The notes beneath the pieces are model-generated. The model made no database searches and was not told the DNA's origin. It saw nothing but the letters and a program-made list of their open reading frames with translations. A stretch of DNA of 64,000 nt. Origin: Rosellinia necatrix (taxonomy: Eukaryota; Ascomycota; Sordariomycetes; Xylariales; Xylariaceae). The stretch spans positions 186,001 through 250,000 of the forward strand of contig JAGYVD010000008.1 of NCBI GenBank assembly GCA_021209875.1, read 5' to 3'. The position numbers and the translations under genes are program-made. Position 1 is the stretch's first letter. The number at the start of each line of letters is the position of its first letter. Positions 2,951 to 27,900 of the stretch are shown here, piece by piece.

Positions 2951-3152
2951 TATAATTAACATATTAAAAAAATTGAACCTTAATTTAATTTAATTAATAA
3001 CGGTTAAATTTAAAAACACTACTTTTATATAAAAAGCTGCTTAAATATATAAAGCAAGCTGTAAAAAAAAAAATTAAAACATATTAAAAAAAAATCAGCT
3101 TAATATGTGATATAACGATTATATTATAACTAAATATAATATTTATAGCTGT

Positions 3153-3390
3153 AGTCACAGATAACTGGTTGGCCAATCGGGCATGTGGCACGGACCAGTA
3201 TCCGTACACCTGTTGCCAACTGGGGCGCACAGACCAGCTGTAGCGCACAGACAGGACCCACCCCACACACCTGCACTTAGCCAGAATTCTAGTGGGCTAA
3301 TTCCTCCCACTTACTCTTTCCTTTTTCATCTGTAGATTTTTCGTACAATACATCACTTATTGCTGAAGCCTTGACTTCATATTTGTGACT
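3153..3390. mobile_element. Possible 238-bp MITE or other short non-RIP insertion
   Basis: A patch of normal base composition inside the AT-rich block. It begins AGTCACAGATA (3153-3163) and ends TATTTGTGACT (3380-3390), an imperfect terminal inverted repeat (10 of 11). A direct repeat AGCTGTA occurs just outside at 3147-3153 and 3399-3405, slightly offset from the inverted repeat ends. It has no coding capacity. It may be a miniature inverted-repeat element inserted after RIP of the surroundings, or one too short to be a RIP target. The exact ends and class are uncertain. Confidence 0.4.
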
Positions 3391-5119
3391 GGTGCAACAG
3401 CTGTATTATTATTAAAGCATTTTATAAACTTAAACCTAAATGATATAAAAGCAGCCGATTAAATAATTTATTATTTATATTATATAAAGTTTTTTAAAAG
3501 TATATATAAAAGCAGAGATTTAGCAGCCCAGGTTTTATTAATTATAAAAAACGCGTTATGTATAAACAACGTAAAATCAAACGTTTTTTATATAAATATA
3601 TTATATTTTTATTTAAAAATATAATTTTTTAAAATTATTAAATAAAATATAATTTTAATTTTTATAATAAAAGCTAAAATGATTATTATAAGCTTCACAG
3701 GTAAAAAATAGTAGTTTTAATATAGTTTTTAAAAATTTTATTTTAAATATAAAAATATATAAATAGTTTATTTAAATAATACTTAAACCATGTGTTTAAT
3801 AATAAATAAATATAAAAAAATTATTATAAAGCTTAAATATATAAATATATAAAATATATAATTTAAATAAAAATATTAAAAAGTTTATTGATAATAAAAT
3901 ATTTTTTATTAATTAAATGCTGGGAAATAATTTTATAAAAACTTTATATAAATATAGTTTAAATATTTTAAAGTTTTATTTAATTTAAACGATTTATATT
4001 ATAATATAAAAAGAATTAATAAACTGCAGGTTTAAACTTTTAATACTTAATTAAAAAATTAAAAAATAAAAATATTTAAAATTTTTAGTTTTATATAATT
4101 TTTAAAAAACGTTTTTATATTTTTAATATTTATTAAGATTTTTAAATTATTAAACTTGTTTAATATATTAAAACCACATTTTAAAATTAAATTATAACAA
4201 GCTTTTTAAATAACGTTTAAAAATATAAACTATATAATAAAAATAAATAAAAAACTATAATGAAATAAAAGCAAAAATATAAAAAAATAATAAATAAAAA
4301 ATAACTAGTTATAAAAATATAAATATTAAAAACAGCTAAAAATATATAAAAAGTATAAAAATTTGTAAAAATAAATATGTGCAAACCTATAATATTTTAT
4401 TTTTTTTAAATATTAAAAACTTTACATAATAAAATTTTAAAGTTTAAAATAGTTTATTTTAAATTAATTAATAATTAAGAAAAATTTATAATAATTATTT
4501 AATATAATATTAAAAATAAAACAAAAAATATAAAAAATATTTAATTATTAATTAAATATTTAAAAATTAATTTTATATTATAAGTTATATATTAATTAAT
4601 TAATTAAAATATATAAAATAAAATATAAATTAAAAGATATTTTATATTTAAAAATATAATATTAATATTAATTATTATATTTAATAGTTTTATAATATAA
4701 TTTATTTTATCAATTAATAAATATAGTATTAATATAGCTTAAATAAAATATTTTTAAGTAATATTTATTAGATTTAGATATAAATAAATAAAATAAACAC
4801 AGTTTTTATAATAATAACTATAATATTATTTATTATATAATATTTTAAATTAAAAGGAGCTAATAAAAACAGTATATATAATTATATAAAGTTTAACAGT
4901 AGCAGTTTAACAATATTAATTATAATAAAGCTTTAAAAATTTAAAACAATATATTTTTATATTTAAATTTAAATTTAAATCAAATAAGCTTAATAAAAAT
5001 AAATTTAAAAAAAATATTATAAAAATAAATTAGTTTGTTTTTTAATTTTAAATATTATATTTAAATAAATTATAAATAATTAAAAGAAATATTAAAAATA
5101 TTATTTATAATAATATAAG

Positions 5120-5262
5120 GAGCAGAAATAATAAAAATAATAAAAGCAGCGTTAATAGCAGCAGCAGTAATAAAAATAGCAGCAGCAGCAATAAAAATAA
5201 TAGTAGTAGCAGCAGTAGTAGCAGCAGCAGCAGCAGTATAAATATAAGCTTAGCAGCAGTAA
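5120..5262. repeat. AGC/AGT trinucleotide-rich tract in the AT block
   Basis: Irregular runs of AGC and AGT triplets interspersed with AATAAAAATA, ending in several uninterrupted AGC units near 5220-5240. It is the most GC-containing stretch of this part of the block and probably a decayed simple repeat. Confidence 0.6.
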
Positions 5263-7720
5263 AATAATTTTAATAATTATTTATGATAATTATTAATAAT
5301 TTAAAATATATTAAGAAATAAATTATATTAATAATTTATAAATAAAAATAATTTAATTAATAAATATAATATATAATAAATTATAATAATATTTATAAAT
5401 TAATATAATTATAATAAAATTTTAAAATTATAGCTTTAATAAATAAAAATAATAAATTTATAAAAAATAAAAATATATTTTAAAATAATAAAAAAAACTA
5501 TATTTTATATTAATATATTAAAATTTAATAAAAAGATATAAGCAAAAAATTATATATAGCTTATATATTTAAACTTAAAAAAAAAAGAAAAACATTAAAA
5601 ATAAAAATTAAATATTAACTTATATTTAAACTATTAATAAATTATTAATTATATTTAAACGCTAATAAAACTTTTATTAAGTTTTATTAAAATATAAAAT
5701 AATAATATAATTAAAAATATATATTTAAAAAATTATTTTTTAAATATGTTAATATAATTAAAAATAAACTATTTATAGCTTTAAAAAAGCTGCGCTACAT
5801 AATTTTATTTCTATTTATTATTATATATAAATAAATTAATTATATTAATAAAATATAGATATTATTAAAACATAAGCTAATTAACTTATGAAAAATACTT
5901 AAAAAAATTAATTTAAATAAAAAATTTAAAAAGCTATTTAAAAATAAAACCTTAAATTAATTAATAAATTAACTTATTTAAAAATATATAATAATAATAT
6001 AAAATAGCTTAATAATTAAACTAGAAATTTTTATTTTAAAGATTTTTAAACAAAATATATATATATATAAAATATAGTTTTAATGCTGCATTTATAAACA
6101 TTATACGTTTAAAATAAAAACAACTTTTAAAATTATTTTTATTATAAAATTAATATATATAAATATTTATAGCTTATTATATTACATAAAAGCTGTTTAA
6201 TAAATGCGATTATTTATGCTAAATATTCTTAAAATATTTCCACGCTTTTAATAATTAATAAATCTTTCTACAGATAGATCCACACCTCTGTTAAATATAT
6301 TAGTTTAAAAGGCTCAAAATAATAAATTAAATATTTTGTTTATAATTTTCATTAATTTAATAAAACAAAATTTATTAAAAATAAATAATACTGCCGTATA
6401 AAATAAAAAAATTAAAATAAAACAAATTTATTAAATAATTTATTAAATTAAAATTATATTGTTGTAAACAGGATTTAATTTAACCATTTTTAAATATAAA
6501 TCAAACAATAAATATTATTATTATTAAAAACGAATAAAAATAATAAAACATCATATTAAAATTTTAATATATTTATTATTAAATAATTTATTACATTTAA
6601 AATTATAACAAAACAATTATAAATTTAATAAAATTATTTATAACGTCAAAGAAATTTCAAGTTATTTAAAAATAAAATTAAAAGGCTATTTAGCTTAATA
6701 TTTATTTATATATTATTAAAAGTAATAAAATATTATAAAAACTTTAAAAATTAAAAAAAAAAGTTAAATAATAATAAATTTTATAAAATTTAATTTTATA
6801 AAGCTAGCTTGGACATGAGCTTAATTTAAGCTTAATCAACTATAAAACAAAAAAGTTAAATAAATAAAAACTATGATATAAAAAATGAAATTCAATATGT
6901 TTTAAACAACGTTTAAATATTTTGTAATTTTATAATAACATATTATAAGCTTTAAAAATTAAACATGAAATTTTTAATGTAACAATTAAATAATAATATT
7001 TTATTAAAAATAAAATAAAAATAACCAATTATATTATTAAATAATATTTAACAGCAAAATATATTGTTAAATTGCTATTATATAATCTTTAAATATTATT
7101 AATTTAATTAACATATAAAATATATTATATTTATACTAAAAATAATATAGCGTTGTTATATTTAGTTATAATAAATAAAATATAATATATAAAAATAATT
7201 AATTATTAACATAAAATATATTATATTGTTTATAAAATATAAATTGTAATTTATATATGAGAAAACAGTAAAGTTTTTTTATAAACATTTATAACTAGTT
7301 TCTAATATAAATATAATATAAAAATAAATTATTATAATAATAATATTTAAAACTATAACTCAATATTATAATTTAATAACTATAATTAATCAAAAATAAT
7401 AGCAATTTTAATATAATTATAAAAAACTTATTTATTAAAATTAAAATTAGCAAAGTTATAACTAAAATCAAAATTATTTTTGTTATTAATCCTGCTACTG
7501 CAAATATATAAAGTTTTTTAACTAAAATTAATAAAAAAAAAACGAAAGAAAAATAAAAATACAAACCATATAAGTAGTAATAAATATTTTAATAAATAAT
7601 TATAAAAACATAATTAAATATAAAAAAAAAGTTATTAAAATATAAAAACACAGATTAAAATACAGAAGTACAAATTAAAATATCATTTTAAAAACCTACT
7701 TAAAAATCTATTTAAAGATC

Positions 7721-8882
7721 TACTAATAACCTACAAGATCTTTTAAGCTTTTATTTACGAACTGCTGTATTATTAGCTTCACCTTCTTTCTTACTTATTA
7801 AGTCAATTAAAGTCATATATTGGTCCTAATTTAGAATCCTTGTCGTATTAGCTGTAGCCAGCAATACAATACTATTATTTTACGTGCCGCTGGCCCTTAC
7901 ACTACTGTACGATACTTAAAGATGTGGTAGTGGCCTACGTACATAATACAACAAGCGAGGGTAAATTGGGATAGATATGACTATAAATAAATGCCCCTGC
8001 CGGAAAATGGGCGGTAGATTGTTCTACTACATCCTTCAGCTTAAGCCAACTACAGCCAAATGCCGTAGGGATCTACCTCACATAAAAATGGGGACATTTC
8101 AGCTGAGTTCGCGTTAAGGTCGCGCGCGGTCAGGCTGTCGGCGGTTAATTCATGCCATATTTGCAAATTATAGCAGCTGGCGTGGAATCTCAGCTCTGAG
8201 TGCCCTGCTGCAGGCTAGAGAGTAATCATGCGACGGCTTTGTCGAATAGGACCACTAAGCGAGGAATCCGCCTAGAATCGCGACAATTAAACTCAAGAGA
8301 GCATTTTGTACGCGTTCTCGACATGCGACCAGACTTTCAGATACATTCGTCTTGCGATACAACCCACTATACAACAGAGTTCCTTGTGCATATCTGAATT
8401 AATAGTACGGCTACGTACAGCCTGGTCAAGTGCCCTATTTGATAATCTTCTATTCTTGCCTCTAGACGTGGTGGTATTGTGGCCCCATGCGGCTGTTTTC
8501 TTTGTGATCCGGCAGGTAAAGTTAGTTAGATAATTAGAAGCGATGGGCGGGACTAACCGAGCTAGGATCATAAAAGAAATAGTTTACGAATGCAACCGTG
8601 GGGGCTGCCTGCTTTTACATAACTTAGAACTTCCCGCCCAAGATACATGTTATCGAATGGACGAATGATATACGGTGGATCTTCGGCGCCTCACCCCTTC
8701 CCGGCCGATTCCTGCAGCCGGGCTGAGGTTTCAATCTACCGCCGCGCTCTGTGACGCTGAGATACGAGCCTTCTCATCCAATCATATGGGAATGGTGCTG
8801 TCGGGAAATGGGTGGTTGTGGCACGCATGCTGGAACGAGCCTGCTCCTGGCGTGATAGCGATGATTAGGTACAAAAGGAAGA
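7721..8882. other. Boundary region without a supported gene
   Basis: Composition rises from the AT-rich block to about half GC. Only short overlapping open frames occur on both strands between 8200 and 8930, none with recognisable features. I see no RNA gene. It may hold the promoter of the gene starting at 8883. Confidence 0.5.
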
Positions 8883-10031
8883 ATGGGAAGGTCACCATAT
8901 CCGAATCACCTCCACTCCATGTCTTACAGTAGACCACCTCAAGACGAACTCGTACCGGACCAATATCAAGACGATATGGCTGATGAAGGACATCCGAGTT
9001 TCGATGACGTTACCGTCTTTGACCTCTACGAGAAGCAGAATATCGGGGAACAAGCCGCAAAGGGAGGACTCAAGACCTACATTGCCGATCCTGATTCCGG
9101 GTTGGTATACGCTAGCAGCAAGTCGGACTACGCTGTCCTCGTTGAGCGAGTTCTATGTGTAGATGGCCAGGAGAAGGAATGTGTGGGCGAGTCTACAGCG
9201 AAACAGAGGATGACGCTGCTCATTTTGAGAATACAAGTCAACACGCAGAAACCGGACGCCCAAGTCCGCGCGGTGGCCGCCACGCTGAGCATCCAGAACG
9301 CGAAGACGGGCCCAAAGGCTAACCCGGTCTTGGAGGCGTGGGCCCCTTTCCGACGGCTGCAGCTCAGCGATCCGCAAAAGGTGGCTTATAAAAACACGGT
9401 CAGGGCGCAGGGTACACTTGGCACCGGAGGGGTGTCGTTCGGCGTCGAAGCACGCGCCGAACTGGGCCGCGAGACGGAAATCGCCTTCGACCGTGTTTAT
9501 TACGACACGGCGTATGCGGCCATCCGGGCGGATAAGGCAACAAGGCAGAGGGGCGGCGTTACATGGTACATGGAGCAGAGCAAGGTCCAGACCAAGAGCG
9601 TGCCGCCGGAGCTCTTTGCCGCCGTTCTCTTCACGCGAGAAACAGACGACGCATACATGGTAGGCTTCGACATCGACGTCTACGGGGGCACGAGCTACGA
9701 CTTCCGTAACAAGGTGAAGCGGGCCTTTGGCCGCAGGCCTGGGCACACCAGACCGTTCCTGGTACAGCCTGCCGTCCCGGCAGCGGTGCGCGGGGGCGAG
9801 GGTAGGGCTTTTCTGCGAAGCGTGAGAAGCAACAATCTCGGAGCACTCAGGGCGAAAGATGACAGCACTGTCCTGGTCATTATTCGACAGGAGGAGAAGG
9901 AAGAGGGTATCATTCTGCAGAACGAGGAAAACGGCGGCGATGGCGTCAAACAGGAGCGTGCTGAGCAAGACGCTGGTCAAGGTGGGGTTGGTGAGCCCGG
10001 GGAGGAAAGCCGCCCTTGGGCCGAGGCATAA
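8883..10031 (+). CDS. Uncharacterised 382-aa intracellular protein
   Basis: Single-exon frame of 382 codons. An alternative in-frame ATG at 8919 (MSYSRPPQDE) would drop twelve residues. The N-terminal 60 residues are polar and acidic. Residues about 100-300 look like a mixed beta-rich domain with alternating hydrophobic strands and a VSFGVEARAELGRETEIAF segment. The last 40 residues are Glu/Gly-rich and probably disordered. No signal peptide or membrane segment is apparent. The general layout resembles lineage-specific fungal proteins of unknown function, but I do not recognise the family with certainty. A 298-codon open frame runs antisense over the same DNA. The plus frame is preferred because it is longer and has a protein-like hydrophobic pattern. 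It is the first gene after the AT-rich block and has no introns, unlike most genes here. Confidence 0.55.
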   Translation: MGRSPYPNHLHSMSYSRPPQDELVPDQYQDDMADEGHPSFDDVTVFDLYEKQNIGEQAAKGGLKTYIADPDSGLVYASSKSDYAVLVERVLCVDGQEKECVGESTAKQRMTLLILRIQVNTQKPDAQVRAVAATLSIQNAKTGPKANPVLEAWAPFRRLQLSDPQKVAYKNTVRAQGTLGTGGVSFGVEARAELGRETEIAFDRVYYDTAYAAIRADKATRQRGGVTWYMEQSKVQTKSVPPELFAAVLFTRETDDAYMVGFDIDVYGGTSYDFRNKVKRAFGRRPGHTRPFLVQPAVPAAVRGGEGRAFLRSVRSNNLGALRAKDDSTVLVIIRQEEKEEGIILQNEENGGDGVKQERAEQDAGQGGVGEPGEESRPWAEA

Positions 10032-11027
10032 CTCGCCTATCCAGAGCACATGGGCAGCTCCGGCTCAAGGCTTGGATAGGGGATGTAATAGCACCTATTA
10101 CCAGTAACTACCTAGTTACCTGGCTAAGAAAATTAACCTACCGCGTAAAGGACACGAGCAACTAAGGCATTGCCCAAAAGCCTGAGCGGCTGAGGTATCC
10201 AGTTATTGATCATGAGATCGGCATTAGCTATACTATCACTAACTAGTTAGTTATAAGATGTACACAATGCAACAATTAGGGGTAGTCCAAGTTCGTAGTG
10301 TTGGGTAGCCCAGAAGTGGCCTCAGCCTCGGCGCTAGCGAACCAAAGAACTACGCCCCATGTTCTCATCTGTAACTACCTACACTACCTGGAATGGATGT
10401 ATACTCGGCGCGTGTAGTGGCTGGCGACTGGTGGCGTCTGCGGTGGCCGTATCCGGTGATGATATGCAATGCATGCAGTCACCAGTGAGCTGCGGCGAGG
10501 TCGCTGTAAATAGGTACAGTAGTGGTTATTTGGTATGTACAGTATGTGTACAAATACTCATTCAACTAACCTACCGAGTTTAGCGACGTAAGTAGTGTAC
10601 TTGAGTCTATATATGTCTACAAGCAACCCCGCCTTCTTTAGAGCTCCAAGGCGTCGCCACGGCGGCTACAGCCAGCGAAATCGATGTAAAGTGATCTGAA
10701 TTTGTGCAGTGAAGGCGACGGAGTTGGGTGACGCTACTGTTGTCGAATATAGCACATGAGGTACCACCACGGCGGGGAAGAAAAGGAATGAATCTAGTTA
10801 ATTGAAATATTAAAAAAAGGGACACCAAGAATGTCGCGGGGGTCAATACTCTTGCCAAGACCGTTCGTAAACATTGTACACTCCCATAACTAATCGATAA
10901 TTATATTGCAACGTCAGCTGCAGCCGGACTTCATATGCTAGCTTTGTAGCCACCATCCTGCGCGCGTCGGCCCGGGCCCCTGTGTCTTCCGTGCGATCAT
11001 ACCTCCGGTGTGCGTGTCGACTGAATA
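10032..11027. other. Intergenic region before the subtilase gene
   Basis: About 1 kb without a supported gene. Short open frames on both strands (10359-10583 plus, 10607-11037 minus) lack any protein features. Likely contains the 3' end of the 382-aa gene and the promoter of the protease gene. Confidence 0.45.
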
Positions 11028-14000
11028 ATGGAAACAACGGAAACCGGAATCCATGGCGCCGGCGCGTCGGAAAGCGCCAATAAACTCCAGCACTTAAAGT
11101 CGCGCTGGGAAGATAATTTCCATCGCTGGCCTGCGGGCACCGCCGCCGACGTCCTCCAGGCAGATATTGATCAACTATTTGAGGGACCTAGTGCAGAAAG
11201 GGTCGATATGGAGACCGGGCTATCAAGGCTACTTGATAATAAAAGCACCGATGATTTAATCGATGACTGTATTCGACTGAGACTGCTGGTCGGCATCGGC
11301 GACAAGGAGTCTGTGTCGGATGCCACACGGACCTTGAGTTTCCTTCGCAGAATCCTGATCAAGCAGCAGCCATATCTCTCCTTCCTCCCGTTTAATTATA
11401 GCGCGCTTATCGGACATTTTTCCGACGTCAATACTGCTGAAGCTGCAGCTAGTCTGCATATCCAAGCTCAAGCTGAAGCCCTGCTCAAATGGAGGTGCAA
11501 TTATAAAGAGAGGCACAGAGAGCCGCAGCAGGTGGTTTTTGATCTGAATGTTTCCATGTCGCATGTGACATCACCGTTCCACAGCGCGCTTTCCGTCGGG
11601 GATCATTCCACAGTCGAATACATGATTGACTGCATGAAGATATTCCTGCAAGAAGAGTTTCCGGACGTCCAGCTATCAGAGGCGAACGAGGCTTCCCGAA
11701 GCCAAGAAGCCCTCGCCATAATTTTGCGGACAGCCCATCCTGAATTCGCCACTCCGTTGGAACACGTAGTTAGGAGATACTGCCATGCAAGCGAGGCCAA
11801 AGACACAAGGGCGTCTAAGCCAAGCGACGCTGATAGGGTTGGCAACCTTCCTTCAGCGGACTATTTAAAGATCATCGGGACTCTACTTTCGTGTGAGCCC
11901 AACCCCCTCAAGGGAGGTCCGGCACTGCAAAACGCATTATCGATTGCGTTAAAGTACGAAAAATTGGACGTCGTGGAAAAGATCATCGATTTTGCACCCC
12001 CGTCACTCCTTATCGAAAGCACCGTCATAGAGCAGATACCGAGTTCGGCATCAGAGAGATTAACGACCGGAGTTGCATTGATTCTTGACTCTTGGTGTAA
12101 AACCCGGGCACCAACTCCAGCGATCTTCAATAAAATCATTGAATGTAACCAGATACAACTCTGGACACGTCCATCAACGTTGTCAAGTTTAAAAAGCTTG
12201 AAGACAGAAACGAACATTGCTCGAGAACTACTGGACACCGCGATTGACCATAAACGGGTGGAATTTGTTGACCAAATCGCGACTTTCTTTCCTAATGCTT
12301 TTGATACCGGCCGGGCTAGCAAGCTTGTTCAGCATGGGCTATGGCAGATATGGATACTTGACTCTGTCCAAAATGCTATGAGCCTATCCTGTAACCAGGA
12401 TCGAGCTCAGATACTGCTGGTGCTAGCGATAGAGCAGCAGCAGGATCGATTTGTTGAGCATTTGTTAGAAAGAAATCCAAGGCTAGCCCTAGGGCCATGT
12501 CCGGTCATGAGGTCATTGCTGCACAAAACGGAACTCGAAGAGAGGAAGAATGGACTGTATCCCTTGTGGTATAACAACCACAGGCGAACTGAAAATGGGG
12601 GTGACTGGGAAGAAATAATGGATAGGGGTGACATATCAAGAGTAAATATCAGGAAAGCCCTTATACGGGCATCGATTAGAGAAGCTCAGCATGTGCCTGA
12701 GTTGGTTGAAATTTTCCGACATTCAGATGGTTTGTACCCGATCCTCTTTTTATAACCACCGCGCAATGTTAAACTAACCATCGTAGAAATAGGTATGGCG
12801 GGATGATTTCTCGGACGCGTGTTATATGGGTTTTTTTAAACTAATACCATTGAACTTTCCTTAGATCTCGAATTCTGCTTCGATTTGTCTTCTTTCGATT
12901 CCAAAGGCTATTCCCTAGAGGAATTCGCCAAGTCCTTGCGCGATCCACCCGGGGAAAGCACACAGAATTCTCATCGCTACGAGCCCATTCTTCGGCATGC
13001 GGCATTTCCAGTGTTAGAGTCCACTATAGAGGACGGTTGGAATCGTCATGAACCACGAGACCACAGCGAAGTGTTTCAGATTCTTGATTGGCTTCATGAC
13101 GAACGTGAGGTTGAGGAGATTGTAGAACTATGCGTCCCAGACAGGATGTATAACCCCCCACGACGAGCATCGTATCGCAGAGTATGTACGAATGTTCCAA
13201 ATTGGTATTTTGGATTGGAAATGCCTAGACCTGGCTGTCTCTGTCTTCAAGGGCGGTTGCGGAGACTCAATTAAGAAGATCCACTTGTATTCAAGTGGTA
13301 GACGCTCCGCTATCGATCACTGGTTAAGCCAAGAGGGGGTTCGACAGCTACCAAACGTATGTAGCATACCTTCCGTCCACTTCTGATCTAGGCTGTTCAA
13401 TGTACTAATAATAATTTTTTTTACCAAGGTTCAAATTGTTAGGATTCACCTTATAAAGGTTAGTTTATGCGCATGTGGTCCAAAATGCGAGGCGAATAAA
13501 TAACCAAAAGACGACTGATTTAGGATTCCATAAGTCAATCCGCTAGAAAGAATATTGAAAGTACTCTCAACCAAGGGATTCAAGAGCTGAAGAAGGACAG
13601 GCCACACCTCGACTGCACGTATAGCATTGAGAATTGGAATGAGCAGCCATCACAGACCAGGAGTACTCTGGCTGAAATGTAAGGTTGACGGAGCGTTATC
13701 AAACATATAGAAGCTGATGAAACAATAGTGCCGAGAAAGCAGTGCCTAAGTTATGGCCATTCATTTCCAAATATTGCGACTATATTGATATACTGAGCCC
13801 TGCTGAGCAGCAATTTCGACCAACGAAAATAGCCATAATCGACAACGGAATCATGAACATCAACCATATACAACAGGGGCTTGCAATCAAGGATATGCAA
13901 AGAGACCCCCCGGGAGGGTTACACCGAGTTATCGAAGGTCGGTCTTTTGTTGACGAACGTCACACAATGAGATCTTGGTCATTTTCATCCGATCCTCATG

Positions 14001-14900
14001 GGACTCAAATGATGAATTTGATCTGTGCAATAGACCCCCGCTGCGAGGTATACATAGCCAAGGTTGTTGAAGGAAGGTATGGGATAGTTCCTAGACGCCT
14101 GGCAATGGTGGGTCCCCATTCGTGAATATGAGAGCCCCCCGGAGCGGCGTCCCAATTATTCTGACCTGTATTGCAGGCAATTACGTGGGCTATTCAAAAG
14201 GGGGTGGATATCATCTCCATGAGCCTAGCGAGCTACGAGCTAGATGAGGACGTGAAAAATGCTGTGCAAATGGCTGATAGCAGTGGAATACTCGTTTTGT
14301 GTAGCGCTCACGACGAAGGACTCAACTATGAGAAAGCATGGCCTGCCTGCTTAAACGAGACCGTAACATTTGCTGCCTCCGATCGGTTTGGCTACGTAAC
14401 GCAGAACATGCCTGCGGATGGATATAATTTTCGCATCCACGCGACAAACATATTTGCTGGCATTGTCCCGTTTAGTAAGTTTAATCGAGAACCGTGGTTA
14501 AAAGATATCAGTGGATCTCTATTTCGACCCCGATCAGGTTGCTAACCGCAATGAAAAATACATCTTAGTGCGCTCTGAAAAGTACGTGTCTGGAAGCTCT
14601 GTTGCTACGGCTATTGGGGCTGGACTTAGTTCCTTGATCATCTCCTGCCATTATTTGGCAAACAACAACCGCCCTGGCAGAGGAAGGAAATGGAAAAGGG
14701 ATATAATGGAGAAAATTCTGGAGCGAATGCGTTCGAACCCAAAATCCCAATATATCCAACTCGATAAATTTTGCGATATTGCCATCGTTTCCGCCAACAG
14801 CCCCCACCTACCCTTCGAGGATATCCTAAATCAGCACTTTGTCATGATGGAAAGTTCGTTGTATATCAGGCAAAACAAATCCGTGAATGGGTGTACCTAG
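11028..14900 (+). CDS. Subtilisin-like (S8) serine protease with long helical N-terminal region; one apparent frameshift
   Basis: Predicted exons: 11028-12729, 12865-13356, 13429-13458, 13524-13678, 13729-14107, 14177-14474 and 14512-14900. Phases agree at every junction. The first ~560 residues are alpha-helical, with weak ankyrin-like helix pairs and no signal peptide, so the enzyme is probably intracellular. The C-terminal third is a subtilase domain with all three catalytic motifs: Asp in IAIIDNGI, His in SDPHGTQMMNL and Ser in SGSSVATAIGAGL. The block VDIISMSLASYE is also typical. Within exon 2 the frame changes at a run of six C (13154-13159): upstream codons continue into a 3' frame only if one base is discounted. 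This is either a recent inactivating insertion or a sequencing error. The last intron would be only 37 nt. The gene ends 85 bp from the stop of the convergent NLR-like gene. The architecture is known in fungi as uncharacterised intracellular subtilases. A partnership with the NLR is my inference. Confidence 0.75.
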
Positions 14901-14985
14901 CGACGAGCAGAGTCAGATGACCGGCTTTTTCATACGATTATATCTCTTAACCACTGTTCATAGGAATTTGATATTACTTATGCCC

Positions 14986-17900
14986 CTAGTATAACAAGTA
15001 TGATGTATCTTGTTTATGTTCGATCTCACTACCTCCTCGAGGCATATATGACTCGAGTAATTCAACCGATTTAGGGTTGTTTGCCCGCTTAGCGTGGTCG
15101 AGCGGTGTTTCGCCAGATGCATCTTTCGCGTTGATGGTCGCGCCTAGTTTAATAAATAGTTCCAAGACGTTCGGTAAACCCTTCTGCGCGGCCAAGTGTA
15201 AAATCCGAAAACCTCTATTGTCCGCCTGATCTAAATTGGTAATTCGGATTCCCAAACAACTCATGATTCCGTAGTAATCATAATCAGGGGATGTAGGTTG
15301 GTTGTCAAATAGAGCGAATAGTGGAGGTCGGCCTTGAGCATCAATACTCTTAGGGTCTGCTCCGTGCCATATTAACTGTTTAATGATTCGAAGCTTCCCG
15401 TATCTCATTGCAACATGCAAAGCTGATTCCCTCTTGTTGTCCCTGGACATAATAGCCGGATTGGCACAAGCATAGATTAGCTGGCGTGGTATTTCCGGCC
15501 CAAAGTCGCGTGAACGAGGGGGTCCACCCGCAACCTCTTTGTCGTACTGAATAGCGTAGTGCAGGACAGGGATATTTTCATCGTTAAATCCATTGGGGTC
15601 GGCTTCATGGTTTAATAACGTGAGAACGATCCCTATATTCTGAATCTTGACTGCGTGGAATAAAGCTAGGTCCAGACGTCGTTTCCGATCATGTTCGCCC
15701 GCGACAACACACTTACAATAGAGATCGACGAGCCTGGCATTGATACCTAGCGCATCTTTGTTGGCCATTTTTTCGAAGATCGAAATGAAAATTTGGTCAT
15801 GGCCGTAGTGCATTGCGAAATCCGCAGGCACCATGCCTGACTGATTTTTCACCAATAATGGTGCATCAGCAGACAAAAGAGTACGGACGATATCCCCGAA
15901 CCCATATTTTGCCGCTTCATGAAGAGGTGTGTTACCTTGTTGATCCTGGGCGGAGATGCCAGCAGGATCGCGCTCTAAACTATCCTTCACAGCCCAATTC
16001 AGTCCAACACGAGATGCGATTTGCAGTCCAGACATTGATCCCACCCAAGACCTAATGTCTGTCCAGTTCAGTTGTAAATTTGAAGCCTCGGGATTTAGGT
16101 AAAGCGAAATGATCATCGACATGGATAACCTTGATTTATCATTCATAAGAGCTGAAATCCGCGCATATATATTGCGGCACATTAGATCATGGTTATTGGG
16201 TTGGTATTGTGATCCATTTACGGGTACCTCTGACAGCACGTCGTTCGCTATTGATTTCGGTTCAGTGTTGTACTGGTCATTTTCTTGTGCTGGTTCTTTG
16301 AACTCGGGGGCCCTCTTGCCACTTTTTTCTGTGGGCTTTTGGGCCTTGTCAGATAGCGTGGTTTCTTTAATGAAGTGTTGTGATTCGACGAGCATAGAGC
16401 TTGAGAACTCCCGACAATAGCGACCCCAACATTGCACCGCCTGGGGGAGAAAGGTGTATTTTTTCTGTAGCTTGTGCACTGCCTTGGAAGATTCCAATCT
16501 TGTATCGTCGATGTGTACATCAAGGATGTATTCGATGCAATATAAACAGATCTGACCCAGAATATCTCGGCCTGATATAGATTTGGGGATGACGCTCAAG
16601 CCAAGAGGCGGAAACCAAAGAGACTTCACAACGTTGATGACTTGAGGACTGGCGAGTCGAACTAACTGCGTACCCTGATCTAGGACGACTAGCCCGTAGA
16701 GATGAACAAGAGTTGTATCTAGGCCCGCGTTTCCTTCTGGCTCCTTACTGCTGGAATCAATATGAGGTCTGGAGTGATATAGCTTGTTGGAAATACATCT
16801 CACTGCCCCCCCTAGACCTTGAAGAGGCAGGGGGGCGTCAGCAAAGGCCAACCATATCAGTACTAATCGTGCGTAGGCTGACTGTGACCCCTCATAGTTG
16901 GCTAAGTGCGAAAGATGAACTCTGATAAGTTCATCAACCTGGAAATGAATGGGCAAATCTCGCAGAAATGCCACGTGTTGATTCATCAGAGACTGCACTG
17001 AGTCCTGGTTAACAAAATGGATTAATGTTCGTGTTAGATACTCGCTGGATGCGGCAGTAGTGTGCCTTGTAAAGTTGACAAACAAAGTGGCAAGAGTGAA
17101 CCTGTGAGTACTGGTCAATTTAGCCTAGAATAATAGAAGGCGCTGTACCCACGATCCTTGCAACTCATTCACAACTAAATTGGCCCAGTTGGTAAATTTA
17201 GTATCAGTTGAAGCGCGTGAGTTGTTAAAATACTCCACGAACATACGATCCATTCGCATACAGACAAAGGTGTCAATGTCTTCGTGATTGACAGAATGGC
17301 TGAGCTGAAGGGGTATGTGCCTAAATGTGGTTAGGGCACCAGGCTCTGTGCGGCTTGTCAAGAGTATTTTGCGCCCCTCTCTGACCATGGTGTTTAATAC
17401 AATATCAAAATCGTGCATCCTTCCAGGTTCCATCTTTGCCTCTTCCCAGGCATCGACTATAAAAAAGACATCCTCAGGAATTTCTGTTAGGACATCGTTG
17501 AACAAACCAAGGACTCTTTGGAAAGCCACACGAGATTTCCTATCATGGGCTTTCGCGAGAGATGATGCCACAACTTCAGGATACTTGTTTTGTAGCTGAC
17601 TAAGGAGGCTTAGGATCAGTCTTTCAGGGCAGGTTATACCACAGTCGCCAAGATAGTAATAGGCATGCGTGAGGCCGATTTTGGCGAACTCGTCGATAAT
17701 TCGGGATCTATCAACGTTAGCCTGTGGCAAACAGAGAGAAGGGGTCTAGCCATACACTATTGTGCTCTTGCCAACACCAGGGGGCCCCCAGCACCATAAA
17801 GTTTTGCATGCTTTTTCCCCCCCAAACAGCCATTGGTCTTTAAATATTGGATTGTTAATAATCCAGTCACAGGTGCTGTGTAATCGATTTTCGCGGAAAT

Positions 17901-18874
17901 ACGTATGCCTGGCAGCGTTCAGGTGATTTATCGACAACTGGTCAAAGTTGTCGAACCGATGTTCCAGATCAAGGATAGCCTTCCTTATGTATGGGTCCCA
18001 GTCCACCATGCTCACAAGTGGCTGGCTGGATATCGGTTGTGATTGGCACTGGAGAGCAGCATCTTGATTCATCAAACCAGTGGTCAAGGGCCTAAAATGA
18101 TAGCCTGATTAGCATTAACGATTCGGATGGAAGTAGGGCGACACGTATAGCGTACGGCAAATATTGGGGGGATTCAGGAATAGATAGTCGGTGTAAGGTC
18201 ATCTCTAATTTCCGGATATGTTTCGAGTAGGTTTCCTCCAAGATCTGGAGATCTTTCGAGTGAATTTCCTCCAGTGCCGCCTCTATTCTTAGTGAGGCGA
18301 TCATGAGTTCTAGGGTTTTGAGGGCGGATTTTAGTCGTGTTTGCAGCTCTGCTATGGCCAAATCGCCATTACGTTTGTGCTTGCGACAGCGCAACAGCTG
18401 TTCCCAGCGGGAGTATCCTGGCGGAGCCCGATCAGATAGCAGTTGTTCCATATACGCAAGTTTGTTTTTATACTGATCTAAATCATGTATAAAATCCTCG
18501 GAGTCCGGCTTGCGCTGACAAGATCTCATAAGAAGCATGATCTGGTCGATCTTCTTTCGTATAAGCGAAGCGGTTTGCTCAATTTCACCGACAAGTGCCA
18601 AAGTCCCGGCCGACACGGAAGCTGGTCGATTGTGGGTTGGCTTGAGTCTGCGCTCGTAATCGCTAATAGACAGCACTGAATCCGAAAGCCAAGTGTAGAC
18701 TATCTCATACTGTTGTTTGACCCGGATGTCGGTATTCCTGGTTGATAGCGCGAGTGCATGTTCCGGGTCTTGGTCCCCAGGCGCGGGGTGCGAACCTAGA
18801 GCCAGGCCGCTATCGATACGAGGTCTTATTATATTCATCACGATGAAGTAACGATGTCCTGTATTATTGCACAA
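14986..18874 (-). CDS. NACHT-ankyrin NLR-like (STAND) protein
   Basis: Predicted exons on the minus strand: 18874-18156, 18091-17758, 17721-17153 and 17101-14986, giving about 1245 aa with consistent phases. An in-frame ATG at 18838 is an alternative start. Residues 1-240 are a helical, coiled-coil-prone N-terminal domain that I cannot assign. The NTPase has a Walker A P-loop GPPGVGKST (about 343-350), a Walker B-like FFIVDAWEE (about 437-445) and a sensor-like KILLTSRTE (about 464-472), as in fungal NACHT proteins. A Ser/Lys/Glu-rich linker follows. Residues about 925-1235 carry ankyrin repeats (for example NTPLHEAAKYG, SALHVAMRYG, ILHLAAQKG, ETPLDHAKRA). Such proteins are fungal intracellular receptors linked to heterokaryon incompatibility and non-self recognition. 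The intron between exons 2 and 3 (17722-17757) would be only 36 nt and directly follows the P-loop. Base composition is lower in GC than the housekeeping genes to the right. Confidence 0.85.
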
Positions 18875-19602
18875 TAGTCCGAGGTGTCAGCGGTTATTCA
18901 AGCCGAGTGAATAACCGAAGGGTAGTGAGAATAGAGAATGGAGGTGATGGGTGGGGGGGGAATGGACAGTTGGGGGCGGATGGTGCCTATTAATACTCAA
19001 TACGTCACATGATTACGTCTCAGCACAGAGTCAACACATGCACACTGCCCGGAAGATCACGTGGCAACATTTGGCTCGGCGAATTATACATCAGCTGGGT
19101 GCTGTGTGAGCCGCCACACTACCACAGTGTGTCGGCCTGTCGGCAGGGCCTCAGCCATACGGCCTATGCCACGATAGCACTTCTTGGCTATCATGGGAGA
19201 CATCTGGTCGTTAACTAGACAACTCCTCAAGTATGTCCACCACGGCACCCGTGATGACGAGAGCACTCGGCTGCGGAACTTGATGGGGTTGGACAATACT
19301 GCGAGGCCAATGTTCTACCAGCCGCACTTCTAGCGGACAAGTCGACTCTCCTCACCATGGCATTGCGAAGGTCCTAAGGTACTGTCCGTTAAAAATGCGC
19401 CGTTTTTTTATATGCCCTGTTTACTTATATTATATGTTTATTTCCAACTTTTACATCTTTTGACAAGCTTTTATAGGCTTTTATAAGCTTTAAACTTTCG
19501 TAATGCTAAGTAATCTAAGCCCCTGAAGACTATTGAGCCCTGAGTTCTTATCTCAAACCGCTCCTTGGCCAACATATTTCTGCCTCCGCCGAAATAAATC
19601 GG
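18875..19602. other. Intergenic region between NLR-like and kinase-like genes
   Basis: No supported gene. The NLR-like promoter should lie just right of 18874, where a G-run (18952-18960) is visible. The stretch 19380-19500 is AT-richer with repeated TTTATAAGCTT-like words, mildly reminiscent of RIP-affected sequence. Confidence 0.4.
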
Positions 19603-21083
19603 TCAAGCGTTGGTGTTTAATATAAACCTCTGTATAATCTCCCTGACGCGCGCATCGGTCTCGTAGTTCTCGTACTGCGTGTTCCTATACGTCTTGGAGA
19701 AAACGGCATTCCAAGCCAAATGCAGCAGTTCGTCCAGCTTGGGCCTGTTCCCCGGATCGGCAGCTAAACACCGCACAATGAGCAACTGCAGGTCATCGTC
19801 CATCAACGGGTGCTCATTTTGAATGAACTCGCGGCAGTCTTCTACTTCCAAGACGGGGTCTTCCGCGACGATGCGCACCATAGTCTGCGGAGGGTTCACG
19901 TCAGCGACAAGGTCCCCAGCCTTTGACCACAATCTACTATTGAAAATATCAACTGGAATGCTGGCTTACCAGTCCTACATCGAGAACGTTCGCATGAATT
20001 CCAGCGTTCGTCATGCCCTGTTCTCTCCGGCTATGGATATGTTAGTATTGGCCCGTATAGATTATATCGGATATACCAACTATTGTGCAAGTTCCAGCTC
20101 ATCGTCAAAACCCTCTACAGCCGACATATTCGGCACTCTTTCTTGGTCGACTGTGTCGGAATTGTCAAAGTCGATTAGTTTTAAGGGTGGAACAAGTCCA
20201 TGCTCTTGTCGGGCGCCTAGGTGACCGAATAACACTATTTCGGTGATTAGCAGTGGTCTCATTCGTAAATGATCCTACATGTCCTAGTCACTAGGAGATG
20301 AAACAGTACTTACTGTTACCGCCGTGCATGTCCCAATGTGCGAGAGCCAAAGGCATGACATTGGGTTGAACCTCTTCGGGTTGTCCCTGTTGAGGCGGCC
20401 AGGCCATAGCCACACAAGCTCTAGTTACTAAGTCTTGGTCAATATAACATGTTCAAGGCAGATTTTCCGGCGATAGCATCACTCGGTAATACCACAAAAC
20501 TTTGTATCATGTATAGGAGACCCTATAACTCACGACAGAGAAATATGCTCCATAGTATACGATTCGGTAGAACCACATCTTCAGCCCGCTCGACAAATTG
20601 GGACAAGGATCCATTTTCAAGATACTCAAGTATGATAAAAACTCGGTCGAGCCCGGCAAGCCCCTCGTTGGGGCCATTCCGTATATAGATAGGGTTCACG
20701 GTATGCTCAGCGTGCTTCAGTATCTATGAAGTAGATTGGGTATATGTCAGCCTTCATCCTTCTACTACAACAATTTTTGAGTTTATATTCCTATAAACAA
20801 CCAGGGAAAGAATACCAAAGCTAATTTCAATGTAGTAACGCTGTGGATATCTCACCTGTACCCATTTGATCTCATTTTCCATAGCCTGAATCGTGTCCTC
20901 CGTGCTATCGTTGGGGTACTTGAGCACGATTTTCCGAGTTCTTCCCATAGTATCTCTTTCCTCGAAGCAAACACAATCCCCTGTAGCACCACTGGGTAAT
21001 GCCTTTACGAACCGAAATCGGGGATCTTGGGCGAAAAATTGTTTCAATTTTTGTTCGAGCTCTTCAGCATCTCGAGAACCCAT
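19603..21083 (-). CDS. Protein kinase-like protein (exon structure partly unresolved)
   Basis: Minus-strand exons that join cleanly are 21083-20856, 20723-20534, 20427-20314 and one starting at 20234. A further exon is likely around 20030-19970, and the last ends at 19603. The product shows kinase landmarks in order: a beta-3 lysine in KIVLKYP, an alpha-C Glu in ENEIKW, a hinge-like FIILEYLENGSL, a catalytic loop HWDMHGGN (HxDxxxxN, with Trp for the usual Arg), and KLIDFDNS where DFG would be. The C-terminal part LIVRCLAADPGNRPKLDELL matches the end of a kinase C-lobe. The catalytic Asp and Asn remain, but DFD instead of DFG and Trp in HRD suggest a divergent kinase. I could not find phase-compatible canonical splice sites joining the fourth and fifth exons, so a lesion or a non-canonical site is possible there. 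A small fungal-expanded kinase family is likely. Confidence 0.6.
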
Positions 21084-22273: not shown

Positions 22274-22360
22274 CCTTCCTTCCTTCCCTTCCCTTCCCTT
22301 CCCTTCCCTTCCCTTCCTTCCCTTCCCTTCCCTTCCCTTCCCTTCCCTTCCCTTCCCTTC
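22274..22360. repeat. CCTTC pentanucleotide microsatellite
   Basis: Sixteen or so near-perfect copies of CCTTC (with occasional CCTTCCTTCC steps), running directly into the left LTR. Two more CCTTC units follow the right LTR at 29178, so the retrotransposon split this array. Confidence 0.95.
22356..22360. repeat. Target-site duplication copy (CCTTC), left
   Basis: CCTTC immediately left of the TG terminus. The matching copy is at 29178-29182. Because the flank is a CCTTC array, this match alone would be weak, but it coincides exactly with both LTR ends. Confidence 0.75.
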
Positions 22361-22498
22361 TGTCAAGAGAAATAGATTATTATGATAGTTAAAGATGTAT
22401 TTAAGGTGTAGAATTAGTTATAGAGATAGGTTAAAAGACCTGGGATATTTAGTAGAATATATATCCAGAGGTGTGGAGTAACTTATATATATTTAATA
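22361..22498 (-). repeat. Left LTR (element 3' LTR), 138 bp
   Basis: Aligns without gaps to 29040-29177. About two dozen differences, all of them transitions. Its outer (left) half keeps G and C (starts TGTCAAGAG), while its inner end is mutated (TTTAATA against TTTGACA in the other copy). Confidence 0.93.
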
Positions 22499-24439
22499 TT
22501 TTTATTTATTTTAGACTGTTTTATGTTTTTTATAAAAAGTTCTGAAAAGCTATTTTAAAGTTTTATATTAAGTTTAAACTAAAGTTTTTATATATATAGT
22601 ATATATAACTTTTATTTAACTAATGTTGTTAATTTTTTTTTTTAGTATTTTTTATATTTATAGTATTATTTTAATATTTAATTATAGCGTTTTTTAGTTA
22701 TAGCTTAACTTATAAAAAACTTTCTGTAAAAAAAAAAAAAAAAAATTTAAAATGTGTGCTAATATATTTTTAAATAAATTATTAATATATTAGTTATACG
22801 TAGTTTTATAAGCAAAGGTTAAATTTTTTTTTAAAAAATAGGTTTTTTAGTTATATTTAGTTTTAAATATAAAATATTATATATATTAAGCAGAAGTTTT
22901 AGTTAGTATATGTTTAGTTTAAGTTATATTAAATTTTAAAGCGTTTGATTTTTTGTTATAAATAATCTAAAAAAGCTTTTTGTTTATTTTAAAATATTTT
23001 TTTGCTTGTAATATTTTTAATATTTTAAGCATAAAGTTATAGTTTTAAAATATTATATTTTTTTCTTTAGCTAAGTTAATAATTATTATTATAACAAACA
23101 TATATTAAACGTTTTTTTTTTAGTTATTTTTTAATTAAATGTTTTATAATACGTTAAATAAGCTTATTTATATATGTTTTTAGTTTTTTTTTAACGTAGT
23201 AAAATATATTAAAAATATTTTAAATAAACACGTTTAATATTTTTTATAAGCTTTTATTTTTTTTTATTAATATATAAAAAAATAGTTTTTAAATAAATAT
23301 ATAATATGTTTGCAGCTATAACAGGCTTATAAAACTAATTAAGTATTAAAGCTAGTTAATTGCTTGTTGTTTTTATGTTAAAAAGTAGTTTTTAATATAT
23401 TAAAATAGTTAATATTAATAAATATTATAGTTTTTTATTTTATTAATAATTAAAAAGTTTTAAAGCGGTTTATAAAATAAAAAAATAATAGAAAATTAAA
23501 TAAAATTAGTTATAAATATTTAAAAGTTTTAATTAAGCTGTTTATATTAAAATAAATTATAAAATGTTTTTATTAAAAAAATTTTCACAGTACTAGTGCT
23601 ACTTAATTATATAATAAAATTAAATTTTAATTTTGCTAATAATATAGCTTTTATTTATTTTAAGCCTATAGTTCTATAAAAAATAAAAAATTTGTTTTTT
23701 AGTAATACTTTAATAAATTTATTAACGATTTGTTTTACTATTAATATAAACTATAATTTAACGTTTTTAACAGCTTATTATTTATAAATAAATTTTAGTT
23801 AAATAATTATATATTTAATATTAACGTAATATAATAAATTATTAGCTAATATTATAGCTTTTAATTATTGCTATAAATAATAGTTATTCTAATTTTATTA
23901 TTAATATTTAATTTTTTAATAATAGCTATAACTAAATAGCTTTTTAATAGCTTATATTTAGTTAATATATTTTGTTTTATAAAATAATAAAAATACGGTA
24001 GCTTATTGTTTTAAGCTTTAATTAATAATACTACTGCTTATTAAAAAAATATAGCTAGAAGTTAACTTTTAAGTTTTTTAGTTTTTAACGTAATTAATAT
24101 TAGTATAGCTAATAAAGCTTTTCAAAGCTTTACAATAAATTAATTTTAAGTTTGCTATTTTGTTTAAATATTTAAATATATATTTAATAGCTATAATATA
24201 GTTTTTATTAAGCTTTATTAAAAATAATTATAAAATAATACTAAAAATATAATATTTAGTTTTATTTTAAATATAATATATATTAACAAGCTGATAGTTT
24301 TTATATATTCAGTTTTCTTTTTATTAAACGCGATAAAGTTTATAAATAAAAGTTTAAATAGTTTTATTTTTATAAAAATAACGTTTAAAATATATTTTTA
24401 TATATAAAAGTTTTTAATATTTTTTAATATAAGCATTTT

Positions 24440-24920
24440 ATTTTAAGTAAATTGTTTAGTTAAAACAGTTTTTTTTAACTATTATTTTTAAATAATATAA
24501 ATATAAGCCTAAGTCTGTTATTTTAAAACGTTTGCTTAACGTTTGCTTAAAGTTATTAATTTTTAATTTTAAAAGTTTAGCTATTAATAAGTTGTTTATA
24601 TATATTGTTATATATAAATAGCTTTTAATAAATATTTTAATATTTATATTTAGTAGTATAAAACTTAGTTTTTTTAAAAACGCGGAAAAAATATTATATT
24701 AGATTTTTAAAAACTGTTTTAGTTTATAAAATATTTTATTTAAGCAGTATATATAACTAAAGCTGTTATTAAATTTTAATAATTGTTTAATAGAAATTTT
24801 TTTATTTATTAATTTATATAAAAACGTTGTTTTAACGTTTATTTGTTTAAGTTTTAAGTTTAAAGCTGCTGTAATAACAAAAATTGCTTTATAATTTATT
24901 AGTTTTATTATTAATATCAA
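24440..24920 (-). pseudogene. Copia reverse transcriptase relic inside the LTR element
   Basis: A minus-strand frame of 73 codons (24920-24699) reads QINVKTTFLYKLINKKI, then CLNKIFYKLKQ. These match the copia RT blocks QMDVKTAFLYG and LNKALYGLKQ with G-to-A changes. Continuing downstream past new stop codons, the same reading gives ITIYINNLLIAK, the YVDD catalytic box degraded to YINN. This fixes the element as Ty1/copia (Pseudoviridae-type order not testable) and its orientation as minus. The gene is inactive. Confidence 0.8.
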
Positions 24921-27900
24921 AGTTTTATTATAGTTTAGCTTTTTTATTTATTTAAAGCTTTAAATTATTTATTATGCTTTATACTAAATAATTTTTTTAT
25001 TAGGTTTTTTTTTTAGTTTATAAACTTATTTATTTATAAACAGTTTTTGCTTTTTAAATAACTTTATAAGTTTTTATGTTTTATTGTTTATAAAAAACTC
25101 ATATTTACTGTTTATTATTTTTTGTTAATTAAATTAATTAGCGTTTTTTTTATTTAAGCTAGTAATTTTAGTTTAATAAGCTTTAAAAAAAAAGATAATA
25201 TAAATGCTATGCCGACTAATAATATTATCAGCTTAAAAATATTAATAAAAAGTTTTATAAAGCTATTAACAGCTAGTATTTAATATCAGCTAAATAAGCC
25301 TGTTTAAAAACAAAAGTTAAAGTAATTTTATAAAACTTTTAAAGCAACAATTATAATAAACTTTTAAATGTTTTTATTATTTTTAGTTTTTATTCTGCTT
25401 TTAAAATAGCTAATAGTTAAACTATAAGTTTTTTAATTTAAAAAAAACTATAGTTTTAATAATAAAAACGGTGTTATTTTAAATAAAATAGCCGAAATAT
25501 TAAAAAAAGTTTTATAAAATAGCTTTAAAAGTTTATTTTTATTATTTATTTTTAATAGTTTTAAATAATATGTTTTTTTTATAAAGTCCTGCTAAAAGCA
25601 TATTTTATAATTTTTTAGTTTTTTAGCTAAAAACTTTTTTTTTTTTAATTTTAACGTTTTAAGCCGCGGAATAGTTATGACAGCTTTAATAATTAGCTAG
25701 GCTTTTATAATAGCACTAGCTAGTTTTTTAAATAGGTTTAAAAAAAAAAACTAATTTTTTAGTAATAAATATATATATTGTTTTTAAAAATAATATTATT
25801 AGCTTATATTATTTTATTAAAAAAGTAGTATTATATAGTTTATAGCGCTGTTTTTTTAATAGCTTAATATTTTATATTTTTATGTTTTTTTATTAAATAT
25901 TAACAGCTTTATTTTTCGCAAGTAATAATTATTTAATTTAATAATATATAAATATATTAAGTCTAGCTTAATATTATATTATATTTTATATAAAGTTTTA
26001 TTTTTTATTTTTAAGCTGGGCTATAAGTTTTTTAAATATACTGCTGTTTTAACTAATATAAGCTAATATTTTAAATTTATTTTATTAGCCGTAGTATTTA
26101 TAAGTAGTTTATAAATAATTTTTTTAATAATTTTTATAGTTTATTTTACGATATTATTTTATTAATGCTAGTTTATAGCAAAAAAAAACAAAACGATATT
26201 TTTATTTTAATATATAAGTTTAAACGCGTTATTTATAAAATTTAACTTTTAATTCAATATAATAATATAGCAGCGTTGTTTTAATTGTTTATATTAATTA
26301 AAAAAGCTTAAATAATGCTAATAAATTTAAACAAAAATTTTATAAAAAAGTCCAGGTTTTTAAATATAATTATTAATTATAATTATTTATTAAATAAATT
26401 TATTATATTTTATAATAGAGCTTTATTTTATCAGCATTTTAATAAAGTTAATATAAATAAATTTAAGTTTATAAGTTTTTTTAGCTAAGGTTTTTTTATA
26501 CGGTTTTTTTTTTATTTGTTTTTTAATGCAAGTTTTATATAAGCAGTGCTTTTAAAAAATAATATTTTTATTATGAAGTTTATTAGCATTTAAAGTTTTT
26601 AATTATTAATATGTTCAAATTAGTTATACCAGACTTATATTTTAAAATCAAAAATAAAATAAACGTAAAGCTTAACGTTTAAACTAAATATATTAATATT
26701 AAAGCTTAACGTATTAATTAAATATAAACCGCTGTTTATTTATATATTAAAAAACATTTTTATTTTTAGTTTTAAATGTTTTATTTTAATAAAAAAAATT
26801 CTGCGTTTTTTAAATAATTAAAATATAAAAATTAAATTAACTTCTGCTTTAAAACAATATATTATTTTATAAAAATATTCTATATTTTTTACTGTTTATA
26901 AAAATAATAATAATATAATTTTTATTTATTTAAATATAATTATTTTATTTTTAATTCTTATTATTTTTAGCTTATTATAACGTTTCAAATTAATAAAGCT
27001 GTTTTATTTATAAAACATATATTAATTACAGCTTAAATTAAAAATAATAACGTTATTAAATTATTTTGTAAAGTTTTAAGCAATTTATTTAATAGTATTA
27101 GCTAGCAAAAATTATTTTAATACGTTAATAACCTATAAATTATTTAAAACGTTATTAAAAAGTTGTATTTTTAAAACATATAATTTTAATATATTAGCGT
27201 TAAATTTAGCTGTTAAATAGCTTAATTTAAGCATTTTTATAAAAAAGGTTTTTATAAGGCTAAATATAATAAAACTAAAATTATATTATTAGTTCTGATT
27301 AAGCTAGGTAGCAATAAAAAAAGTGTTTATTTATTTTATATTAAACCTATTATAAAAGTTTTTATTTTTTTAATATTTTTTTTTATTTTGTTTTTATTAA
27401 GTTATTTTTTAAAAATAAAAGCTTTTTTTTAATGCTAGTTTTAAATATAACTTATAATATTTAGCTGTTATATGCTTTTTTTTTTATAATTTATATAGTT
27501 TATAACTACAACTAATATAACGTTAAAATTTTTTATTAATTTTAATAATTATTTTTTAGCGCAAGTTTTTTAAACAGCGTTATTAAATATAACAGCTTTT
27601 TTAATTATTATATTAATTAAGTTTTTTTTAAAAATAATTTAATAGTTCTGTTTAAAAAAAAAAAATATAATCTAAGGTTAAAACAGACAAAAATTTATTA
27701 AAAATATAAGTTTATAGATTATATAATTAATATTTAAAATAATTATATTATTATAAATAGTTTAAAGTTTTTTTAAAAGCTTTAATATAGTTCTGCTGCT
27801 GCTTTTTAAGCTTGCGTTATTTTATTAAACAAATAAAACAATATAAATAATATTTTTTTTAAGTTTAAAGTTTTTTAAAATAGCATTTTAAAATTAAAAT

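What the first reader, a model, noticed from the sequence alone, without database searches (positions are those of the whole stretch)
8883..21083. Candidate fungal immunity/allorecognition island: subtilase, NACHT-ankyrin receptor and kinase between two RIP blocks
Seen: an S8 protease gene (Asp/His/Ser motifs present), a convergent NACHT-ankyrin STAND gene 85 bp from its stop, a divergent kinase-like gene and an unknown 382-aa protein, all between an AT-rich RIP-type block and a RIP-degraded retrotransposon. Established: NACHT-ankyrin STAND proteins control heterokaryon incompatibility and are proposed fungal innate immune receptors. Protease and kinase domains occur as effector modules in such systems. 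Inference: the protease and NLR could be a receptor-effector pair in which proteolysis is triggered by non-self, with the kinase as a further component.
Basis: partly seen in the sequence, partly recalled or inferred. Interest (0 to 1): 0.75.

Follow-up and report, generated by a model that had tools for sequence, protein, structure and literature searches.

The report
Fungal protease–NLR–putative pore-former cluster
A fungus carries several copies of a small gene cluster pairing an intracellular protease with an immune-type receptor and an unknown protein whose predicted shape resembles bacterial pore-forming proteins, which would be a new kind of fungal cell-death switch if confirmed at the bench.

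Summary
In this 49-Mb fungal genome, S8 proteases sharing this protease's middle domain occur at six loci (7 genes). Each locus has an NLR or NLR-like gene within about 4 kb of the protease; 5 of 6 also hold a divergent relative of the 382-aa protein beside the protease. Gene order and NLR class vary, so the trio looks maintained, not coincidental. The kinase was not seen again. Gasdermin–S8 pairs of the published kind also exist here (three gasdermins found, each near an S8). The 382-aa family shows no gasdermin signal by sequence; two low-confidence AlphaFold models most resemble hemolysin/leukocidin beta-pore-forming proteins. Best reading: a gasdermin-pathway analogue in which an NLR-linked S8 protease controls a different putative pore-former. 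Fold, cleavage and function are unproven; strain polymorphism and linkage in other species could not be tested. The window's protease carries one frame change (natural or assembly error).

The parts
8976..10031 (+). '382p': family of probably intracellular, mostly-beta proteins of unknown function; ORF opens at 8883, start by homology at 8976 (351 aa). Putative pore-forming effector.
   Evidence: 14 public relatives; no Pfam family; five family members in own genome; fold.
11028..14900 (+). S8 (subtilase) protease with degenerate ankyrin-like N-terminus (weak), middle domain and catalytic domain; exons 11028-12729, 12865-13356, 13429-13458, 13524-13678, 13729-14107, 14177-14474, 14569-14900 (hand model).
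13154..13159 (+). Run of C where the protease reading frame changes; only lesion found in the gene.
   Evidence: paralogue frame.
14986..18838 (-). NLR: N-terminal helical region without another match in the genome - NPHP3_N/NACHT - ankyrin repeats; exons 18838-18156, 18091-17756, 17707-17153, 17101-14986 (hand model), 1229 aa, no internal stop.
19603..21083 (-). Protein-kinase-like gene (HWD...N, DFD motifs by eye), not recognised at the other loci; probably not part of the module.
1..7900 (.). AT-rich block with RIP-type indices (left boundary).
   Evidence: indices computed on 1-8000.
22400..29000 (.). AT-rich block with RIP-type indices (right boundary).

Best explanation
The island is one copy of a recurring three-gene module: an intracellular S8 protease (ankyrin-type at several loci), a beta-rich '382p' protein beside it, and a nearby NLR. 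Most likely it works like the fungal gasdermin (HET-Q1) / S8 protease (HET-Q2) switch: the NLR or the protease's own repeat domain senses non-self, the protease is released and cleaves 382p, and cleaved 382p oligomerises and perforates membranes, killing the cell. Shown: the genes, their recurrence and linkage within this genome, homology of the five 382p members, and separateness by sequence from the gasdermins found in the same genome. Suggested only: hemolysin/leukocidin-like fold of 382p. Inferred: cleavage, activation, pore formation, cell death, allorecognition role.
Confidence: 0.5

Rival explanations
1. One reading: NLR and protease are the receptor-effector pair; proteolysis of general cellular targets kills the cell, and 382p is an inhibitor, decoy or guarded target of the protease rather than the killer.
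For: The protease-NLR link is the more complete one (6 of 6 loci, one of them by a weak match, against 5 of 6 for 382p); one locus shows no 382p. Fold evidence for a pore-former is weak.
Against: In the published fungal cases the S8 protease's neighbour is its substrate and the executioner (gasdermin; passages). 382p is the immediate neighbour of the protease at 5 loci.
Confidence: 0.25
2. Coincidental neighbourhood: NLRs, proteases and lineage-specific genes collect in fast-evolving, transposon-rich regions, with no shared pathway.
For: The window copy lies about 0.2 Mb from a contig end between two RIP-type AT-rich blocks.
Against: Other S8 loci are rarely near NLRs (1 of 20); the C5:2.53 locus has ordinary GC of 43-63% over the 38 kb read; the same two non-NLR families meet five times.
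Confidence: 0.08
3. 382p is a very divergent gasdermin, so the island is an ordinary gasdermin-protease cluster with an NLR next door.
For: Same genomic slot, similar length, mostly-beta prediction.
Against: A profile of 15 relatives finds no gasdermin in the PDB, while a profile of only three gasdermins of this genome finds RCD-1-1 at 7.6e-10 and HET-Q1 at 2.9e-5. Neither VIA list shows a gasdermin among its 50 rows, which excludes nothing.
Confidence: 0.15

Closest known systems
HET-Q1 / HET-Q2 of Podospora anserina and Q2L S8 protease-gasdermin two-gene clusters of fungi
   Same: Intracellular S8 protease, often fused to ankyrin/TPR/WD40 repeats, encoded next to a small partner protein (reviews, passages); three such pairs were found in this genome.
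   Different: Partner here is a different family with no gasdermin signal by sequence, the proteases carry a middle domain found only at these six loci at E up to 0.1, and a separate NLR gene is nearby.
het-S / nwd2 type NLR-effector gene clusters
   Same: NLR encoded next to its executioner (passages).
   Different: No HeLo domain matched in 382p; an added protease gene belongs to the cluster; shared amyloid motifs were not examined.
Hemolysin/leukocidin family of bacterial beta-barrel pore-forming proteins
   Same: Predicted beta-sandwich with a low-confidence, Gly/Ala/Ser/Thr-enriched insertion near mid-chain.
   Different: Eukaryotic, apparently intracellular, no sequence similarity found, models of low confidence.

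Membership tests
Fungal gasdermin (RCD-1 / HET-Q1) | 382p: sequence-profile similarity to solved RCD-1 or HET-Q1 | tested here: not met
   3 matches up to E 10, none a gasdermin; positive control.
Fungal gasdermin (RCD-1 / HET-Q1) | 382p: gasdermin fold | tested here: inconclusive
   Low-confidence models; none among the 50 rows shown in each.
Fungal gasdermin (RCD-1 / HET-Q1) | 382p: gene beside a protease gene | tested here: met
   Five loci; partly ascertained.
HET-Q2-like (Q2L) S8 protease | S8 domain with Asp/His/Ser motifs | tested here: met
   six of seven genes keep all three motifs by eye, the second S8 gene on C2 lacks the Ser motif.
HET-Q2-like (Q2L) S8 protease | Fusion to ANK, TPR or WD40 repeats (frequent, not obligatory) | tested here: inconclusive
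   Window: only Ank_3 at E 0.026; clear ankyrin repeats in relatives on C9, C2 (both genes) and C5:1.65; none in the pieces scanned at C5:2.53 and C10:0.65.
HET-Q2-like (Q2L) S8 protease | Gasdermin gene within 10 kb | tested here: not met
   The three gasdermin hits (one query, E up to 0.01) lie at other loci.
NACHT-type NLR (STAND) | Nucleotide-binding domain with P-loop plus repeat superstructure | tested here: met
   NPHP3_N, NACHT, ankyrin; GPPGVGKS motif.
Hemolysin/leukocidin beta-pore-forming family | Characteristic fold | tested here: inconclusive
   consistent top matches, but mean pLDDT 46.9 and 56.1.
Hemolysin/leukocidin beta-pore-forming family | Sequence-family match (Pfam) | tested here: not met
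   15 members scanned, no such family up to E 10.
Hemolysin/leukocidin beta-pore-forming family | Amphipathic membrane-inserting stem | tested here: inconclusive
   composition above the rest in 11 of 11 rows (marginal in three; the four distant rows were not counted), alternation not exceptional.
Hemolysin/leukocidin beta-pore-forming family | Oligomeric membrane pore | not testable with these tools
   Needs protein.
Heterokaryon-incompatibility locus | Strain polymorphism and incompatibility reaction | not testable with these tools
   One genome only; no strains held.

The most novel reading that the evidence does not exclude
382p founds a new class of fungal regulated-cell-death executioner: a cytosolic hemolysin/leukocidin-fold pore-former, held inactive and switched on by its neighbouring NLR-linked S8 protease, running in parallel with the gasdermin-S8 pathway of the same cell.
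Probability: 0.35. Interest if true: 0.85.

Novelty: new variant of a known kind. Interest (0 to 1): 0.68.

Why it matters
Fungal immunity has few known executioners (HeLo/HELL domains, gasdermins, some enzymatic domains; reviews, passages). A repeated module in which another protein family takes the gasdermin's place beside the same kind of protease, with an NLR nearby, offers a concrete, testable candidate for how some fungal NLRs could cause death without an effector domain of their own, and a parallel to the NLR-caspase-gasdermin chain of animals with the three parts on separate genes.

Tried and rejected
Kinase as a module member: not recognised at the other loci (no systematic search). 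Pure AT-rich-compartment coincidence: other S8 loci do not show it. Protein search with the full-length protease returned nothing, so relatives of the protease outside this genome are unknown; only the 7994 candidates sharing most words were scored, so they may have been missed. The two 382p searches were capped in the same way. PHROGs and PADLOC gave nothing. A first PDB profile search with 8 sequences gave no match. Amphipathic alternation as independent proof of a stem failed. Gasdermins are absent from the 50 rows of each VIA list, which excludes nothing. Linkage in other species could not be tested: no fungal relatives of this genome are held and the protein search gives no genomic context. 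Literature: no paper held all of leukocidin, fungal, pore-forming, allorecognition; the listings showed no title on a hemolysin-fold fungal executioner, within open-licence papers and listings only. The original HET-Q1/HET-Q2 report (Clave et al. 2022, recalled) was not in the three papers listed and was not read; its content is taken from reviews, of which only passages were seen (PMC12881547, PMC10197012, PMC10989679); PMC9815663 passages only.

Statistics are rough: the figure of 5e-13 for 382p linkage must not be taken at face value because three members were found in DNA fetched for S8/NLR hits. In that call hits were typed in and merged when under 8 kb apart; the second S8 gene on C2 was merged with the first.

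VIA rows: six rows in each have titles that do not name the molecule (the 6u2s/6u33/6u3f/6u3t/6u3y/6u4p series); I count them as staphylococcal leukocidins/hemolysins from recall.

Full report
What is in the window. The window is 186-250 kb into contig C10 (3.49 Mb) of a 49.1-Mb, 12-contig fungal genome. Between two AT-rich blocks with RIP-type dinucleotide indices lie, in order, the 382p gene (+), an S8 protease (+), an NLR (-) and a kinase-like gene (-). Hand-made exon models give a 1229-aa NLR without internal stops and a protease whose only lesion is one change of frame in a run of C. The NLR has NPHP3_N/NACHT and ankyrin repeats; its N-terminal helical region has no other match in the genome at E 0.001. 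The kinase is on the NLR's strand.

Recurrence within the genome. The protease N-terminus finds, apart from itself, one weak hit, at C5:2.5336 Mb (30%, E 3e-4); the 382p protein finds, apart from itself, one hit, at C5:2.5302 Mb (30%, E 2.7e-21). These are neighbours of each other, and 3.3 kb beyond the second lies an NPHP3_N hit. Reading that stretch shows a NACHT_N-NACHT-WD40 NLR (-), the 382p relative (-) and an S8 protease (+). The S8 half of the protease finds further relatives. Reading around them gave C9:2.645-2.656 Mb (S8 -, 382p-like +, NACHT-ankyrin NLR +), C2:6.338-6.353 Mb (NACHT-WD40 NLR +, S8 -, 382p-like -, second S8-like gene + without the catalytic Ser motif), C5:1.646-1.653 Mb (S8 -, 382p-like -, NLR-like +) and C10:0.649-0.659 Mb (S8 -, NACHT_N NLR +, no 382p in 640-662 kb) (WD40 at C2 and C10:0.65 and the order summary by eye). 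At C2 another short open frame lies between NLR and protease. NLR ORFs lie 0.1-4.0 kb from the S8 ORF. The S8 middle domain of the first C2 gene, searched genome-wide, returns seven genes at exactly these six loci at E up to 0.1.

How sure are the 382p relatives? Pairwise: window-C5:2.53 2.7e-21, C5:2.53-C9 5e-5, C9-C2 9e-6 over about 230 aa. An HMM of the 14 public proteins alone, run against 2295 ORFs of 60 aa or more from the window and the loci fetched by then, matches only these five loci at E up to 1 (C2 at 2e-7, C5:1.65 at 1e-3; adding own members lifts the last to 7.5e-9). Genome-wide with the C2 protein: itself, C5:1.65, and a fragment at C9:3.2543 Mb that lacks the N-terminal half in the frames read and whose neighbouring ORF has a marginal NPHP3_N match (E 0.032). 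Genome-wide with the C9 protein: nothing significant besides itself (next best 0.36, the C5:2.53 member, and 0.39 on C3).

Linkage statistics. 81 NLR loci (merged) put at most 3.3% of the genome within 10 kb of an NLR. Of the six loci 5 have such a hit; of 20 other S8 loci 1 does (Fisher P 5e-4). The sixth NLR was recognised by reading and a sub-threshold match, so it is not in that count. ORF-to-ORF gaps between protease and 382p are 0.3-1.2 kb at the five loci. Ascertainment: the C9, C2 and C5:1.65 members were first seen in DNA fetched for S8/NLR hits.

Internal control. A small protein beside the S8 gene at C9:1.054 Mb has two relatives in the genome. A profile of the three finds RCD-1-1 (7.6e-10), RCD-1-2 and HET-Q1 (2.9e-5) among solved structures: they are fungal gasdermins by sequence, and each of the three starts 1.5-3.6 kb from an S8 hit, as reviews describe (passages). 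One query was used, so more gasdermins may exist. The 382p profile finds no gasdermin. So two S8-partner systems coexist.

Mechanism. By analogy with HET-Q1/HET-Q2, where the S8 protease removes about 40 C-terminal residues of the gasdermin (passages), I propose that the protease cleaves 382p, perhaps in its variable, charged C-terminal tail (beyond about residue 335 of the 382-aa ORF; alignment), and frees a membrane-active core. The NLR would sense and release the protease. Each step is inference.

Verdict. A recurring gene module within this genome, not found in print by the searches named above, with a moderately likely pore-forming effector. Host identity: unnamed; the C9 382p protein is 88% identical to one of Hypomontagnella submonticulosa, which suggests Xylariales (taxon placement recalled).

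Noticed in passing
G000 C9:1.0527-1.056, C7:5.3958-5.4016, C4:0.3011-0.3030 Mb (L054, L052, L070, L071): Three gasdermin genes (profile matches RCD-1 and HET-Q1), each beside an S8 protease hit; the C7 pair also has a patatin-like sequence nearby (by eye).
   Followed up: partly
L063:2399-5000 (C2:6.3504-6.353 Mb): A second ankyrin-S8 gene beside the C2 382p relative lacks the catalytic Ser motif (GHPVATA where the first has GSSLATA): possible pseudo-protease partner.
   Followed up: partly
L069 (C9:3.2528-3.2563 Mb): N-truncated 382p relative without an S8 hit nearby; neighbouring ORF marginally NLR-like.
   Followed up: partly
L068:1354-2324 (C5:1.6499-1.6508 Mb): 382p relative split over two frames: intron or lesion.
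   Followed up: no
G000 C7:5.4539-5.4581 Mb: One S8 hit outside the six-locus group lies 3.8 kb from an NPHP3_N hit on the other strand.
   Followed up: no
window 22275-22360: GGGAA-type simple repeat just inside the right AT-rich block.
   Followed up: no
window 41001-42000 and 63001-64000: Stretches of 75-76% GC in a roughly 50% GC background.
   Followed up: no
window 21203-21781: 192-aa open frame between the kinase and the right AT-rich block, no annotation attempted.
   Followed up: no
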